NCBI RefSeq assembly: GCF_001519065.1
Contig: NZ_KQ954259.1
Coordinates: forward strand, 99,869 to 163,868
From: Novosphingobium sp. FSW06-99
GTDB taxonomy: Bacteria > Pseudomonadota > Alphaproteobacteria > Sphingomonadales > Sphingomonadaceae
DNA: 64,000 bases
Direction: 5' to 3'
The notes beneath the pieces were generated by a model. That model was given only the letters and a program-made list of their open reading frames with translations, had not been told where the DNA came from and searched no databases. A program made the translations under genes and the position numbers. Of the stretch, positions 6,252 to 56,065 are shown piece by piece. Each line of letters starts with the position of its first letter. Position 1 is the first letter of the stretch.

Positions 6252-6330
6252 GCCCCCCTTGCGAAGGACCTGATGCGCTGTCACAACGCGCCCGCCCAAC
6301 CGGCGCCGGGGCGTAACCGCAGGAGTGGCC

Positions 6331-8022
6331 GTGAGCTACGAATACAGCAGCAGCAGTCAGAACTTCACCTTTCCCAACCCGCTGCGCGAACACAATCTGT
6401 TTGTCGCAGGCGCTGCGATGGTGTCCGGACTGACCGGGCTGGTCCTGCTGTTCCAGGCGCGCGCGGCGCTGCACACCGGCGCGCATGTCGAGGCGCTGGT
6501 GGCGGCGGCGGTGGCGTTCCTGCTGGTTTCGATGGGCGGATACCTGCTGTTTCAGGTGTTCAGCCAGTTGCGGTTCTTTTTCGGGCGCGGCCGCCCGCAA
6601 GGGCTGGCCCCGCAATTGCAGCCCGACCAGACCGGCACCAGCAAAGCGGCCGAAACCGCGATCAAGGAAACACTGCGCCAGCAGGCGCTGGAATATCCCG
6701 AACCGTCCGATCCGCTGTCGGGACTGCTTTATTATCTGGTGCCCGATCTGATCTATGCCCCGCGCCCGGTGCGCACCTTTGCCGAACGGCAGTTTCAGGC
6801 GGGCATGCTGACCGTGGCGCTGCTGATCGGGCTGGTGGTCTCGGCCATTCTGGGCGGCGGTGATGGCGGCGGGCGCGTGTCGGGGTGGGTGGCGATCATC
6901 CTGTTCGTGATTTCGGCGCCCAGCCTGCTCAATCCCAGGGCCGGTGCGCGCGCGGAAGTGGGCATCAACGTGCTGTCGGTGCCCAAGATGACCGCGCTGA
7001 TCGCGTTTTCAGTGCTGGGCCCGGTCGCCATCGCGCTGGTCGGCAATGCCCTGCCCCCATCACCGTTCGGCATCGGCGCAACGACGCTGCTGTTGCTGCT
7101 GGTGCTGGCGGGCGTGCTGCACGGCCTGTTCTTTGCCGCGGTGATGCGCCACCGCATGGCCGCGCCCTCGACCAACGTGTCGATGATCCAGGACACCTGG
7201 AACATTTCGGTCAATCCCGCGCTGGTTTCAGCCGAATTCATGCGCGCGATGCAGGATGCGTGGTGGGAAAAAATCCCCAATCGCCGCTATTGCCGCGTCG
7301 ATCCGGTGGTCAATCTGGACCAGCGATCGGGCCAGTTTCAGGGCAGCATCGTCGAGGAAACCCAGCCGGTGCCGTTTGTGATCGACGGCGCCGATGGCGA
7401 TCGCCCGTTTGCCTCGGGCAATCCGGCGATCATCACGCTGATCAACGGCTATGCGCTGGTGCTGACGGTGCTGGCCTGCGTTGCCAGTTACATGCTGGTC
7501 GGTGCGCTGACAGGCGGCGGCGCGGGCATCGGCTCATTGGCGGCGTGCACGCTGTTTGTGTGGGCGCTGGCCAAGGCGGCGTTCGATGTGGCGCGGTTCC
7601 TGACGCTGCGGTTCGATTTCCGGTCAAAGCTGATCTGGATGGACATGAACGGCACGTATGCCGCCGCCGAAGTCGGGCAAGGCAACCGCTATACCTCCAA
7701 CCTCCATTCCAGCAGCCAGGTCGTGCAGATCGAAGGCATGACCTTCCGGCTGTGGATGGCCGAAGTCCATTCGGTGGCGTTCGGCAAGGACGGCCAGCGC
7801 CATATCCTGTCGATGCTGGGCAAACCCGACGAAGCCGCCAGTCTGGCCAAGCGGCTGAAGGATTTCATCACCAGCCAGGCGGTGATGGTCTCGGTCGGCA
7901 GCAGCGGCGATCAGGAACGCGCCGCCCGTGCGGGGATGATGAACGCGCAACTGGGGCTGGGCAACGCGCCGATGCCGTTCGACCGCATTCCGGGGCGGCC
8001 TGAGACCGATCGCGACCGCTGA
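6331..8022 (+). CDS. large multi-pass membrane protein of unknown function
   Basis: 563 residues from GTG 6331, chosen because AGGAG (6321-6325) sits five bases before it; an in-frame GTG at 6325 overlaps that site. About eight hydrophobic segments come in three groups: two near residues 30-80, two or more around 150-260, and a pair around 370-420. They are separated by soluble segments, and the C-terminal about 130 residues are hydrophilic. No enzyme motif was recognised. The soluble loop contains SMIQDTWNISVNPALVSAEF and the C-terminus a beta-rich region. Convergent with the SRAP-like gene. Function not recognised. Confidence 0.75.
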   Translation: MSYEYSSSSQNFTFPNPLREHNLFVAGAAMVSGLTGLVLLFQARAALHTGAHVEALVAAAVAFLLVSMGGYLLFQVFSQLRFFFGRGRPQGLAPQLQPDQTGTSKAAETAIKETLRQQALEYPEPSDPLSGLLYYLVPDLIYAPRPVRTFAERQFQAGMLTVALLIGLVVSAILGGGDGGGRVSGWVAIILFVISAPSLLNPRAGARAEVGINVLSVPKMTALIAFSVLGPVAIALVGNALPPSPFGIGATTLLLLLVLAGVLHGLFFAAVMRHRMAAPSTNVSMIQDTWNISVNPALVSAEFMRAMQDAWWEKIPNRRYCRVDPVVNLDQRSGQFQGSIVEETQPVPFVIDGADGDRPFASGNPAIITLINGYALVLTVLACVASYMLVGALTGGGAGIGSLAACTLFVWALAKAAFDVARFLTLRFDFRSKLIWMDMNGTYAAAEVGQGNRYTSNLHSSSQVVQIEGMTFRLWMAEVHSVAFGKDGQRHILSMLGKPDEAASLAKRLKDFITSQAVMVSVGSSGDQERAARAGMMNAQLGLGNAPMPFDRIPGRPETDRDR

Positions 8023-8025
8023 CCG

Positions 8026-8577
8026 TCACCCCGTCGCGGGCACCAGGTCGAGCGGCGAATGGCCCAACGCCACCAGCCGTTGCGCGCGTTTCCAGTCGGC
8101 TGACAGCCATTCCTGCCAATGGTCGGGCGGCAGGATCAGCGGCAGGCTGACGATCCCGCCCAGCGATCCCTCGGTGGTGACGATCGCATAGCTGGGTATT
8201 TCGCTGTCGCGCCAGATCCCGGCAAACGCGATCACCGGGCAGTCCGGCACGGCCAGCCATTGCGCGCGCCCGCCGCGCGTGGCGCAAAAAGCGGTGGCCG
8301 GGACCAGACAGCGAAATTCGGTGTGGCGCAAAGTGCCGATCCAGAACGGGCTTTCCAGATTGCGCACGTGGGTGACCGCATGCGTCCCGCGCGGCGGCGG
8401 TGGCACACCCCACAGGCGCGGGATCAGATAACGGCTGCCAGTCTTGCCGCGCACCACCACCGGGGCAAAACCGCCGGGGATCACGCTGCCGCGCTGCCAC
8501 ACGTCCCTGCCGGCATCGGCATCGAACGTCGCCGCAATCTGCGCCGCCGGGGCATCGAGGCGATAGGGATGAACCAC
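8026..8577 (-). CDS. SRAP (YedK/HMCES-like) family protein lacking catalytic residues
   Basis: 183 residues from a GTG five bases after the upstream pentapeptide gene's stop. The scaffold is clearly SRAP: PYRLDAPAAQI, VTHVRNLESPFWIGTLRH, RCLVPATAFC, FAFAGIWRDSE and WQEWL. SRAP proteins bind abasic DNA covalently through Cys2, helped by conserved Asn, Glu and His. Here residue 2 is Val, the Asn of the usual T-N-(V/I)-R-N is His70, the Glu after the SF(C/S) block is Ala/Thr (residues 99-100), and the H-P-K-A-M-P loop is replaced by IVSLP (142-146). It probably cannot form the thiazolidine link and may be a binding-only relic. No upstream Cys-containing start exists in frame. Confidence 0.85.
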   Translation of the reverse strand: MVHPYRLDAPAAQIAATFDADAGRDVWQRGSVIPGGFAPVVVRGKTGSRYLIPRLWGVPPPPRGTHAVTHVRNLESPFWIGTLRHTEFRCLVPATAFCATRGGRAQWLAVPDCPVIAFAGIWRDSEIPSYAIVTTEGSLGGIVSLPLILPPDHWQEWLSADWKRAQRLVALGHSPLDLVPATG

Positions 8578-8582
8578 CGCAG

Positions 8583-9266
8583 CTAGCCCAGACGCAGACC
8601 CAGTTGCGCCAGCAATTGCGCAGCCTGATCGCGCGACACCGTGGCGCCCTTGAACAGCGTGGCATCGAACAGCCGCAATCCGCCCAGATCGCACCCGCGC
8701 AAATCAGCCTTGTCAAACCGCGCGCCCGCCAGATTGGCATCGCGCAGGCTGCACGCCTCGAACACCACATCGCGGAAATCGCATTTGCGCAGATCGGCCT
8801 GTTCCAGATCGACGCGGCGCAAGGTCTGTTTGCGGAACGACTGCCCAGGCAATTTGGCGCCGATCAGCAGGCATTCCTCGAACCGCGCGTCGATCAGCGC
8901 GGCATCGGACAAGTCCGCCCCGGTCAGCTTGCACCCGGTAAAACCCGCCCCGGTCAGCCGCGCATTACGCAGCGCGGCGTTGTTGATGTCGCAGGCGTTG
9001 AACACCGCATCGGTCAGATCGGTGCCTATCATCGCCGCAAACGGCGCGCGCACCGATTGCCAGCGGCTTGCCTCCAGCCGCGCGCCCGACAGCGCGATGC
9101 GCCGCATGTCGCAGCGATCGAACTGCCACCCGGTCAGATCGAGGCCCGCCAGATCGGCCTCGGCCAGATCGCACTGGACCAGACGCCAGGGCCCGTCTTG
9201 CGCGATCAGCGCGGCGCAATCGGCGCGGGTCAACGTGCGATCGGTCAGCGTACGGCCGTGGGTCAT
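8583..9266 (-). CDS. pentapeptide-repeat protein
   Basis: 227 residues, of which about 35-210 are tandem A(D/N)Lxx pentapeptides (examples: LAEADLAGLDL, LRNARLTGAGF, LTGADLSDAAL, LRDANLAGARF). These build a right-handed quadrilateral beta helix. Known relatives include gyrase-protecting Qnr/MfpA proteins and many of unknown role. No signal peptide is seen, so it is probably cytoplasmic. Its ATG overlaps the permease stop in an ATGA, and the SRAP-like gene starts just after its own stop, so it sits in the ABC operon by translational coupling. Confidence 0.88.
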   Translation of the reverse strand: MTHGRTLTDRTLTRADCAALIAQDGPWRLVQCDLAEADLAGLDLTGWQFDRCDMRRIALSGARLEASRWQSVRAPFAAMIGTDLTDAVFNACDINNAALRNARLTGAGFTGCKLTGADLSDAALIDARFEECLLIGAKLPGQSFRKQTLRRVDLEQADLRKCDFRDVVFEACSLRDANLAGARFDKADLRGCDLGGLRLFDATLFKGATVSRDQAAQLLAQLGLRLG

Positions 9267-10711
9267 GCGGTCAGCCAGAATGACAGCCCCGCCGCCGCCC
9301 CGCCCAGCGCCAGCGCCACCACCATCACCAGCATGTTGGCCAGGATCGACGCGCCCTGGGTACGGCGGCCAAACGCCTTGCGCGGGGTCGGGCGTTCGAG
9401 CCGCAACTGGATACCCGCCGCCGTGGCCGTGCCAAGCAGGCCAAGCGGCACCAGCGCCACCACCATGATCGGCGCACGGCTGGCCAGACCGAGCGCGATC
9501 AGCGCCAGCAGCGGCGCGGCCATCAGCATCGTCACCACCAGCTTGGCCCGCCGCAGCGTCGCGCGGGCGACCGGCGCGACGGTCAGCAGATCGGGAGTGT
9601 CTTCGCCCGAAATCACCAGCCAGGCCAGATCGCCCGACAGTTGCGTGGTGACGAACACGCCCGCAAACACCAGCGCGGGCAGCAGCACGAACTGGTGTTG
9701 CTGCAACAGCAACAGCATCATCGGCACCAGATAGACCAGCCGCAGCAGCATCGTTGCCAACACTTGCGGGTTGCGCCACACCAGCGCGATTTCCTTGGTC
9801 AGGATCGCGCGCACCAGCGAAGGGGTAAACCGCGCGCGCAGCCCAGACCGCGCCGCGCCGCGATGCAGCAACGGCACCCCGCGCTGCCCCGCCTGTTGGA
9901 ACGCCCTGGCAAAATTGCGCTCGAACAGCCAGCCGGTGATCGCGAACAGCATCAGTGCCCCTGCCACCACCACCAGACCGGCCAAAGGATTGCCGAACCC
10001 CGCGCGCGCCGGCAGGCTGCCCAGCCCGGCCTGGCCAAACCGGTGCGCACGCGCCCAGCCATAGACCAGCGCAAACCCGTTGTGCCGACCGGCATGCCCG
10101 CCAAAGCGGATGGCCTGGCTGGCGATTGCCATTGCCCCGCCAAACAGCGCGATCGTCACTTGCGCCACGCTGCGCGCCGCGCGCGGGCCGGCCAGCCGCA
10201 CGATCACCAGCATGACGCCCAGCCCGCAACACGTTGCCACCAGCACCAGCGCGACCAGCAGAAGCAACGCACCCGCCAGCGCCGGGTGCCCCAGCACGAT
10301 CACCGGCACCAGCGGCGGCAGCACAAAGAACGCTTCGGATATCAGCACGGTGCCCGCGATACCGACCAGTTTCGACCACAGCACGACGCGCGGCGCGATC
10401 GGCGCGCTGAACAACAGATCGAGATCGTCGCTGCCATAGATCGCCGCTTCGGCACGCGACAGCGCCTGGCTGATCCCGAACGTGAACATCACCAGCGCGG
10501 CCAGCGTCATCACCGTCAACGCCGCCGGGCTGGGCCCGATCGGCACGTTGCGCAGCGTCAGCGCGATGCCGATGCCCGCCGCGACAAACACCGCTAACAG
10601 CACGCCAACCACGATCTTGCGCCGCAAGCCGCCTTTCGCATTCGACCGCCAGCCGATGCGCAGATTGTGCGCGATCAGGCCGGGCAGGCTGGCAGGCGCA
10701 AACCGCGTCAT
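9263..10711 (-). CDS. ABC-2-like transporter permease
   Basis: 482 residues with about ten to twelve membrane segments in two clusters (about 30-260 and 310-480), separated by a cytoplasmic linker rich in Arg. The layout is that of large ABC exporter permeases of the ABC-2 type. It starts with ATG in an ATGA overlap with the ATPase stop and ends in an ATGA overlap with the pentapeptide gene, so the four genes form one coupled operon. Substrate unknown. Confidence 0.82.
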   Translation of the reverse strand: MTRFAPASLPGLIAHNLRIGWRSNAKGGLRRKIVVGVLLAVFVAAGIGIALTLRNVPIGPSPAALTVMTLAALVMFTFGISQALSRAEAAIYGSDDLDLLFSAPIAPRVVLWSKLVGIAGTVLISEAFFVLPPLVPVIVLGHPALAGALLLLVALVLVATCCGLGVMLVIVRLAGPRAARSVAQVTIALFGGAMAIASQAIRFGGHAGRHNGFALVYGWARAHRFGQAGLGSLPARAGFGNPLAGLVVVAGALMLFAITGWLFERNFARAFQQAGQRGVPLLHRGAARSGLRARFTPSLVRAILTKEIALVWRNPQVLATMLLRLVYLVPMMLLLLQQHQFVLLPALVFAGVFVTTQLSGDLAWLVISGEDTPDLLTVAPVARATLRRAKLVVTMLMAAPLLALIALGLASRAPIMVVALVPLGLLGTATAAGIQLRLERPTPRKAFGRRTQGASILANMLVMVVALALGGAAAGLSFWLTA

Positions 10712-11442
10712 CGCGCGGTCAGGCGGATGAACGTGTCTTCCAGCGTGGCCTCGTCCGGCCCTGCCAGCGCGCGCAAATCGTCGAGCGTGCCTTCGGCCAG
10801 CAACCGGCCATCGGCGATGATGCCGATGCGATCGGCCATCCTCTCGGCCACTTCGAGAATATGCGTGGTGATGATCACCGTCGCGCCCGCATCGACTTGC
10901 GCGCGCAAGGCATCCTTCACCGCGCGCGCCATCGTGGCATCAAGCCCGGTCAGCGGTTCGTCGAGGATCAGCAGGCGCGGCTGGTGGATCAGCGCACCGG
11001 CCAGCGCGACTTTCTGCTTCATCCCGCGCGAAAACCCTTCGCAACGGGTATCGCGCTGATCCCACAAGTCGAGCCAGCGCAACAGCCGTTCGGCCTCTGT
11101 CGCGGCCAGACGCGGGTCCATGCGCCACAGCCCGGCGACAAACGCCAGATATTCCGCCGGGGTCAGCTTGTCATACAGCATCGGCTCGTCGGGCAGCCAG
11201 GCGGTCACCGCCTTGGCCGCCAGCGGTTCGCGGGCGATGTCATGGCCGAAAATGCTGACTTGCCCCGCATCGGCGTCGAGCAGGCCGGTGACAATGCGCA
11301 GCGTGGTGGTCTTGCCCGCGCCATTGGGGCCAAGCAGCGCATAGAGCTGCCCCGGCGGGATGGTCAGCGACAGATCGCGGATCACCGGTTTGTCAAAGGA
11401 CTTGCGCAAATGCTCGATACGCAACGCCGCCACTTCGCCCAC
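10708..11442 (-). CDS. ABC transporter ATP-binding protein
   Basis: About 244 residues. Walker A GPNGAGKTT, signature FSRGMKQK (a variant of LSGGQ), Walker B LLILDEP and switch His in ITTHILEV are all present, so the ATPase should be active. The GTG at 11442 was preferred because AAGGCGG lies upstream; an in-frame ATG exists at 11475 and a GTG at 11433. It is the first gene of the ABC-permease-pentapeptide-SRAP operon and should energise the permease encoded next. Confidence 0.9.
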   Translation of the reverse strand: MGEVAALRIEHLRKSFDKPVIRDLSLTIPPGQLYALLGPNGAGKTTTLRIVTGLLDADAGQVSIFGHDIAREPLAAKAVTAWLPDEPMLYDKLTPAEYLAFVAGLWRMDPRLAATEAERLLRWLDLWDQRDTRCEGFSRGMKQKVALAGALIHQPRLLILDEPLTGLDATMARAVKDALRAQVDAGATVIITTHILEVAERMADRIGIIADGRLLAEGTLDDLRALAGPDEATLEDTFIRLTAR

Positions 11443-11526
11443 GCACCACCGCCTTGCCCAAATTTGCGTATGCAATCTGTGGCGCGGATCGGCGGTACGC
11501 GCAATCCCCGTGACAATCAGGATCCG

Positions 11527-55750: not shown

Positions 55751-56065
55751 TCAGTTAACTCGCTTGAGGCTAAAGCCATCGGGCGTTTCGCTCTGGACCG
55801 ATGCTTCCTCAGCCACGCTCGAGGCAATGTTGCGCGTCATCTGGACGCCTATCACCTCTATCTCAGCCCATGCTGGATGATGCTCAAACACATTCCAAAG
55901 GATGTTTAGGGGATCGGAACCGGGATTGAACACAGCACTATTCTGATCGATGCGGGCCGAATGTTGTTCGAACCAGATGCGGTTATCGACAGTATCGATA
56001 ATCCAAACTGCATCCGACACACCGCCCGTGTAGGAAGGCTCAAAGACAACCAAGACTTTCATCAT
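55751..56065 (-). CDS. small protein of unknown function between DUF4238 genes
   Basis: 104 residues, MMKVLVVFEPSYTGGVSDAVWIIDTVDN onwards, with predicted strands and the helix LNILWNVFEHHPAWAEIE. A GAAGGGGATG ribosome site precedes the ATG, which favours a real gene. No family recognised. Flanked by two DUF4238 genes on the same strand and equally low in G+C. Confidence 0.55.
   Translation of the reverse strand: MMKVLVVFEPSYTGGVSDAVWIIDTVDNRIWFEQHSARIDQNSAVFNPGSDPLNILWNVFEHHPAWAEIEVIGVQMTRNIASSVAEEASVQSETPDGFSLKRVN

What the first reader, a model, noticed from the sequence alone, without database searches (positions are those of the whole stretch)
8026..8577. SRAP protein with all four catalytic positions lost
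The protein has a clear SRAP scaffold, but the Cys2 that forms the abasic-site adduct is Val, the active-site Asn position is His70, the Glu is Ala/Thr and the H-P-K-A-M-P His loop is shortened to IVSLP. Loss of every active residue with a conserved fold suggests a repurposed, DNA-binding or scaffold role, rather than random decay. The reading frame is intact and coupled to an operon.
Basis: partly seen in the sequence, partly recalled or inferred. Interest (0 to 1): 0.62.

Follow-up and report, generated by a model that had tools for sequence, protein, structure and literature searches.

The report
Abasic-site crosslinker without its cysteine
A bacterial gene keeps the shape of a protein that normally glues itself to damaged DNA but has lost the glue residues; its relatives seem to have lost them at least three separate times while the rest of the protein stayed conserved, which points to a second job that needs no permanent bond.

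Summary
Window 8026-8577 (minus strand) encodes a 183-residue SRAP-fold protein (Pfam SRAP 37.6 bits; model pLDDT 91, only SRAP chains above Z 5). Cys2 is Val, the active-site Asn is His70, the Glu is Ala99 and the His loop has no His. Orthologues at 77% and 70% identity start the same way, so it is no sequencing error. Of 81 Sphingomonadales family sequences read, 72 lack Cys2. A tree without the catalytic columns needs three losses; one loss is rejected (p-AU 0.0001). The sister of the window clade, L044, keeps all four residues and is 77% identical to Cys-less L042. Arg72, aligned with a proposed DNA contact, is invariant (81 of 81). The predicted mature N-terminus stays at the old Cys2 place in 69 of 72 Cys-less sequences. 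The gene ends a four-gene operon behind an MfpA/Qnr-like pentapeptide-repeat gene, a pair kept in 10 of 20 window-clade loci. Best reading: a non-crosslinking SRAP that still binds single-stranded or abasic DNA, at most through a transient Schiff base. DNA binding and chemistry are untested. New variant of a known kind.

The parts
8026..8577 (-). Cys-less SRAP-like gene, 183 aa, GTG start
8572..8574 (-). codon 2, Val in place of the crosslinking Cys
8368..8370 (-). codon 70, His in place of the active-site Asn
8362..8364 (-). codon 72, Arg kept in 81 of 81; aligned with Arg86 of 1zn6
8281..8283 (-). codon 99, Ala in place of the catalytic Glu
8583..9266 (-). pentapeptide-repeat gene, MfpA/Qnr-like fold, stop 5 nt before the SRAP-like start
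9263..10711 (-). ABC permease-like gene (weak match to PF16962, below its cut-off), ATGA overlap with the pentapeptide gene
10708..11475 (-). ABC ATPase gene, ATGA overlap with the permease gene

Best explanation
A conserved, non-crosslinking SRAP protein. SHOWN by computation: SRAP sequence and predicted fold; loss of Cys2, Asn, Glu and His; at least three losses in this Sphingomonadales subfamily; purifying selection afterwards; invariant Arg72; predicted mature N-terminus at the Cys2 place; an operon with an MfpA/Qnr-like pentapeptide gene. INFERRED: the protein still docks on single-stranded or abasic DNA but cannot close the thiazolidine ring, so it covers a lesion or fork reversibly, at most through a slow Schiff base of the Val2 amine. 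The pentapeptide partner, of a fold whose known members mimic DNA (recalled), would act on the same DNA or topoisomerase machinery. Most near genomes also carry a Cys2-bearing SRAP for the permanent bond.
For: Fold and family. Shared losses: Cys2 kept in 9 of 81, Asn in 10, Glu in 36, loop His in 9. Repeated loss: three changes, 0% of 200 bootstrap trees with one; one clade rejected, p-AU 0.000124. Selection: omega 0.25 window-L034, 0.17, 0.22 and 0.10 in other window-clade pairs. Arg72 81 of 81. N-terminus: residue 2 allows Met removal in 62 of 63 Cys-less sequences with the usual start, against 24 of 63 at position 3 and 42 of 71 annotated genes of one Novosphingobium replicon; in 7 of 8 with a start one codon later residue 2 is large, so Met itself would sit there. 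YedK C2A binds AP-DNA much as wild type in a crystal and forms a Schiff base (PMC9436759, passages). Pentapeptide gene upstream in 10 of 20 window-clade loci, 0 of 61 others. A Cys2 SRAP read directly in 11 of 15 near genomes that hold a Cys-less copy.
Against: No DNA binding, abasic binding or partner interaction was or could be tested. Arg72 may be structural. The window clade also lost the Glu-Trp hairpin next to the lesion site. Omega is 0.445 for window-L035, while intact pairs have 0.054 (L050-L086) and 0.139 (L049-L053), so constraint is looser. Ten of 20 window-clade loci gave no pentapeptide hit (L047 has a shortened frame), and 7 of the 10 positives seeded the profile used. No LexA-type box in the 400 nt before any of 81 family genes.
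Confidence: 0.5

Rival explanations
1. The N-terminal amine still works: the protein forms a Schiff base with abasic sites through Val2 (Thr2 or Pro2 in relatives) and cuts the strand or traps the site briefly, as an amine-based AP lyase.
For: Mature N-terminus predicted at the Cys2 place in 69 of 72 Cys-less sequences. YedK C2A and C2S form a Schiff base and C2A shows lyase activity (PMC9436759, passages). Glu is kept in 24 of 38 main-branch sequences.
Against: The window protein lacks Glu; in YedK C2A E105Q the lyase rate falls 25-fold. Glu is kept in only 1 of 20 window-clade members. A pocket that admits nothing longer would explain the N-terminus as well.
Confidence: 0.18
2. A protein-binding scaffold: DNA binding is gone, and the SRAP shell now holds or regulates the pentapeptide protein or the Cys2-bearing SRAP.
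For: Operon pairing with the pentapeptide gene across differing flanks; loss of the Glu-Trp hairpin in the window clade; a second SRAP in most near genomes.
Against: Arg72 and the R-C-L-V-P block are kept. L040 and others lack the pentapeptide gene beside the SRAP-like gene, and the other two Cys-less branches have none within 2.5 kb.
Confidence: 0.2
3. A decaying gene kept by chance in a few lineages.
For: All four catalytic positions vary freely; omega up to 0.445; the His loop and hairpin shrink.
Against: Open frames in 81 of 81, 22 invariant columns in 64 diverse sequences, omega well under 1, three losses with the shell kept each time.
Confidence: 0.08
4. Catalysis by relocated residues, for example Cys98 in the F-C-A-T-R stretch of the window and its two nearest relatives.
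For: Cys98 lies next to the lost Glu place and is shared by window, L034 and L035.
Against: A Cys at this place also occurs in a canonical SRAP that keeps Cys2 and Glu (L031), and no other window-clade member has it.
Confidence: 0.04

Closest known systems
E. coli YedK / human HMCES (SRAP domain, PF02586)
   Same: Predicted fold over the whole length (Z 19-20 against YedK and HMCES chains), the W-G, x-x-R and R-C-L-V-P blocks, and an N-terminus placed at residue 2.
   Different: Cys2, called invariant in PMC9436759 (passage), is Val; Asn, Glu and His are gone; the Glu-Trp hairpin and the His loop are shortened.
YedK C2A laboratory mutant (PDB 8d2m)
   Same: A SRAP shell with another N-terminal residue; the mutant's amine still makes a Schiff base (PMC9436759, passages).
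   Different: The mutant keeps Glu105 and His160, the window protein does not; the window form is natural and conserved.
L044 (Sphingomonadales J_51) and eight other Cys2-keeping members of the subfamily
   Same: Same S-P-F-W-I-G-x-L subfamily; L044 shares 146 of 190 aligned residues with Cys-less L042.
   Different: L044 keeps Cys2, Asn, Glu and His; its 352 nt of upstream DNA show no pentapeptide frame.
MfpA / Qnr pentapeptide-repeat proteins (operon neighbour)
   Same: Four-sided beta-helix with a C-terminal helix in the model; PDB matches to MfpA, HetL and Qnr.
   Different: Far below the family cut-offs (Qnr 52.9 of 240 bits, MfpA 43.8 of 360); action on gyrase untested.

Membership tests
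SRAP (PF02586) by sequence and fold | Score above the curated cut-off | tested here: met
   37.6 bits against 27.1
SRAP (PF02586) by sequence and fold | SRAP fold | tested here: met
   Model pLDDT 91.3; SRAP chains at Z 19.0-21.1, next unrelated row 2.5
Crosslinking SRAP enzyme (YedK/HMCES type) | Cys at residue 2 | tested here: not met
   Val2, as in L034 and L035
Crosslinking SRAP enzyme (YedK/HMCES type) | Active-site Asn, Glu and His | tested here: not met
   His70, Ala99, no His in the loop
Crosslinking SRAP enzyme (YedK/HMCES type) | Mature N-terminus at residue 2 after Met removal | tested here: inconclusive
   Predicted from Val2 by the general Met-removal rule (recalled); not measured
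Crosslinking SRAP enzyme (YedK/HMCES type) | Thiazolidine crosslink with AP-ssDNA | not testable with these tools
   Needs purified protein
SOS-regulated gene | LexA box upstream (GTTCN7GTTC type, recalled for alphaproteobacteria) | tested here: not met
   None within 400 nt upstream of any of 81 family genes; one hit in the whole window, at 55917, far from the operon
Qnr/MfpA (operon neighbour) | Score above the family cut-off | tested here: not met
   52.9 of 240 and 43.8 of 360 bits; the pentapeptide-repeat fold itself is met

The most novel reading that the evidence does not exclude
In Sphingomonadales an abasic-site crosslinking enzyme has been turned at least three times into a non-crosslinking form that keeps its N-terminal amine in the reactive pocket (Thr, Pro, Val, Ala or Ser, or a re-set start Met). 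These would be reversible Schiff-base guards or lyases of abasic sites that work beside the permanent crosslinker, and in the window clade they are tied to an MfpA-like DNA-mimic protein.
Probability: 0.27. Interest if true: 0.78.

Novelty: new variant of a known kind. Interest (0 to 1): 0.6.

Why it matters
Cys2 is called invariant and required for the crosslink in PMC9436759 (passages), and Cys, His and Glu are called absolutely conserved in PMC3765255 (passages). A conserved natural subfamily without Cys2, arisen repeatedly, with an intact sister 77% identical to a Cys-less member, separates what the fold does from what the crosslink does. It offers natural mutants for asking why a cell would hold an abasic site reversibly. 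The searches listed no paper whose title or abstract start describes Cys-less SRAP proteins; I read passages only of two SRAP papers, and most subscription papers are not in that library.

Tried and rejected
Sequencing error or wrong start: rejected by L034 and L035 and by the absence of Met-Cys upstream. Single ancestral loss: rejected, p-AU 0.000124; but some deep forks are weak (85/31 and 90/74), so three is the best count and not a certain one. A first quick tree with the catalytic columns also gave three changes, with starred branches forcing two. Phage origin: no relative in the viral-contig scan; three phage records hold SRAPs at 31-36% identity. Rfam: no match; promoter-like sites: 0; terminator-like sites: 3 against 3.2 in shuffles. 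LexA boxes: none upstream. A NEIL3 parallel (N-terminal Val as Schiff-base former) is recalled; the paper opened for it does not contain the word valine, so it carries no weight. NCBIfam: no match for 3 of 3 SRAP-like proteins given.

Results against my reading. N-terminus rule: L054 (Ile2) and L051 (N-terminus one residue later, start unclear) do not fit and L080 has no start codon in place. The sequences are related, so 62 of 63 is not 63 independent draws; parsimony gives 17 changes at this place. The active site is not lost uniformly: L080 and L108 keep the loop His, L066 keeps Asn, and Glu is kept in 24 of 38 main-branch, 2 of 14 Sphingopyxis-like and 1 of 20 window-clade sequences. One pentapeptide gene lies about 6 kb from a main-branch member (L106), outside the 2.5 kb tested; some of the 61 loci have little upstream DNA.

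Rows dropped. Five rows (L098, L104, L113, L057, L063) and three of six outgroup rows (L001, L030, L032) were left out of the careful tree. A3, used for the model, holds 64 of 81 sequences. The genome scan kept 80 of 245 relatives, best first by likeness to the window, so Cys2-keeping forms may be under-counted. The count of 128 of 195 genus genomes was made by hand, and the Cys2 state of most was not read. Codon positions of V2, H70, R72 and A99 were worked out by hand from the start at 8577.

Full report
What is there. The window lies on contig C9 of genome G000, whose nearest named relatives are Novosphingobium and other Sphingomonadales. Window 8026-8577, minus strand, is an open frame with a GTG start, 183 residues. 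It matches Pfam SRAP at 2.2e-9, 37.6 bits against a cut-off of 27.1. A profile of it and relatives finds solved SRAP structures (2aeg at 1.7e-23, then 2f20, 1zn6, HMCES and 2bdv). The AlphaFold model made with 64 family sequences has mean pLDDT 91.3 and pTM 0.90. Only SRAP chains match well, Z 19.0-21.1, aligned from model residue 2 in 14 of the 15 SRAP rows; the next row has Z 2.5.

The active site. Against the intact sister L044, Cys2 is Val, the Asn two places before the conserved Arg is His70, the Glu is Ala99, its Trp neighbour is Thr100, and the His loop reads G-G-I-V-S-L-P. PMC9436759 (passages only) calls Cys2 invariant, finds Glu105 the most important residue after Cys2, gives His160 a role in ring opening and finds N75A only modestly impaired. 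So the window protein should make no stable thiazolidine crosslink. This is inference from that paper, not a measurement.

Not an error, not alone. L034 (77%) and L035 (70%) share Val2, the His at 70 and the F-C-A-T-R stretch. The species-genome scan gave 80 named loci. With the window that is 81 sequences: Cys2 in 9, Asn in 10, Glu in 36, loop His in 9. Seven (L043, L044, L049, L050, L053, L071, L086) keep all four; L046 and L052 keep Cys2, Asn and Glu but not the His. In the genus search 128 of 195 genomes have a match at E 1e-55 or better (hand count), followed by a gap to 1.4e-40, where G009's copy, a canonical Cys2 SRAP (L028, L136), comes next; the Cys2 state of most of the 128 was not read.

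Repeated loss. On a careful tree of 79 rows without seven catalytic columns, the 67 Cys-less rows fall in three groups: 38 (main Novosphingobium branch with Sphingobium-like rows), 12 (Sphingopyxis-like), and 17 with the window, whose sister is intact L044 (100/98). Three changes are needed, starred branches force three, and 0% of 200 bootstrap trees need only one. Holding the 67 rows together costs 49.3 log-likelihood units, p-AU 0.000124. L044 and Cys-less L042 share 146 of 190 aligned residues. Some deep forks are weak and the sampled intact forms are few.

Selection. Nei-Gojobori omega is 0.25 for window-L034, 0.445 for window-L035, 0.17 for L039-L057 and 0.22 for L045-L047. The median over pairs with dS under 0.7 is 0.19 in the window clade (6 pairs), 0.29 in the Sphingopyxis-like branch (35) and 0.33 in the main branch (33). 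Two intact pairs have 0.054 (L050-L086) and 0.139 (L049-L053) at higher dS. Constraint is real but looser than in the intact form. Twenty-two columns are invariant in 64 diverse members. One of them is Arg72, which aligns with Arg86 of 1zn6 (counted by hand), an Arg that PMC3765255 says could contact DNA (passages).

The N-terminus. In crosslinking SRAPs Met1 is removed and Cys2 becomes the N-terminus (PMC9436759). By the general rule that Met is removed before Gly, Ala, Ser, Thr, Cys, Pro or Val (recalled), the mature N-terminus is predicted at the Cys2 place in 78 of 81 sequences, 69 of the 72 Cys-less ones. Of 63 Cys-less sequences with the usual start, 62 have such a residue 2 (Thr 40, Pro 12, Ala 5, Val 3, Ser 2), against 24 of 63 at position 3 and 18 of 63 at position 4, and 42 of 71 annotated genes on a Novosphingobium replicon (Fisher p 8e-9 if sequences were independent, which they are not; 17 parsimony changes at this place). 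Eight sequences start one codon later; in seven residue 2 is large, so Met itself would sit at the Cys2 place; L051 is the exception. Either a free amine at this place or a pocket that admits nothing longer seems to be under selection. YedK C2A uses this amine to form a Schiff base.

Surroundings. The gene is the last of four on the minus strand: ABC ATPase 10708-11475, ABC permease-like 9263-10711 (weak Pfam match), pentapeptide-repeat 8583-9266, SRAP-like 8026-8577. The first two junctions are ATGA overlaps and the last gap is 5 nt. A pentapeptide gene of this family lies within 2.5 kb upstream in 10 of 20 window-clade loci and 0 of 61 other loci (the profile was seeded with 7 of the 10). 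A further shortened frame stands before L047. Of five newly read genomes outside the named set, three have it. Beyond the pair the flanks largely differ between groups: window/L034/L036, L039/L041/L057 and L045/L047 each share their own neighbours. PLSDB's table for Novosphingobium sp. EMRT-2 lists the pair as pentapeptide repeat-containing protein and DUF159 family protein, 5 nt apart. L040 has the ABC pair directly upstream and no pentapeptide hit. Intact L044 shows no pentapeptide frame in its 352 nt of upstream DNA. The partner model is a four-sided beta-helix with a C-terminal helix, pLDDT 92.8, near MfpA, HetL and Qnr chains but far below the Qnr and MfpA cut-offs.

Division of labour. 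Fifteen of the genomes G000-G024 have a Cys-less copy. In 11 of these I read a second SRAP that starts Met-Cys and keeps an H-D-R-x-P loop. G005 has further SRAP places that I did not read; G002 and G019 show no other; in G000, the window's own genome, the second gene is interrupted by a repeated element, so no uninterrupted Cys2 SRAP was found there.

How it most likely works. The shell, the Arg and the N-terminus remain; the thiol and the acid-base residues are gone. The simplest reading is a reversible binder of single-stranded or abasic DNA that shields a lesion or fork without a permanent bond, perhaps with a slow Schiff base. Glu-keeping relatives of the main branch are better candidates for a true lyase. 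The partner suggests action near topoisomerases or forks; this is inference. Interest is moderate to high because the loss is repeated and conserved and because intact sisters allow clean comparisons.

Noticed in passing
L001 (G000 C8:172405-173195): The only Cys2-bearing SRAP gene found in the window's own genome is interrupted before the His loop by an element of about 270 bases with inverted ends of about 32-36 bases; five other copies at 91-98% identity lie on five contigs, which looks like a miniature inverted-repeat transposable element.
   Followed up: partly
window 8583-9266, - strand: An MfpA/Qnr-like pentapeptide-repeat gene closes an ABC-transporter gene pair; its family lies beside Cys-less SRAP genes of one clade in the loci examined.
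   Followed up: partly
L055, L060, L061, L062, L069, L070, L072, L075; L049, L052, L053, L054: A gene read as thiC (name recalled from its sequence) clusters near the SRAP-like gene in 29 loci; of the 12 rows shown, 8 main-branch loci have it divergent and 4, three of them with Cys2, have it on the same strand.
   Followed up: no
L080, L108, L066, L042, L085, L090, L046, L052: Intermediate active sites: the first six lack Cys2 but keep His, Asn or Glu; L046 and L052 keep Cys2 but lack the His. The order of loss could be worked out with more sequences.
   Followed up: no
window 6325-8022, + strand: A 565-residue protein convergent with the SRAP-like gene matches no Pfam or NCBIfam family; relatives lie beside L034, L036 and L040.
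   Followed up: no
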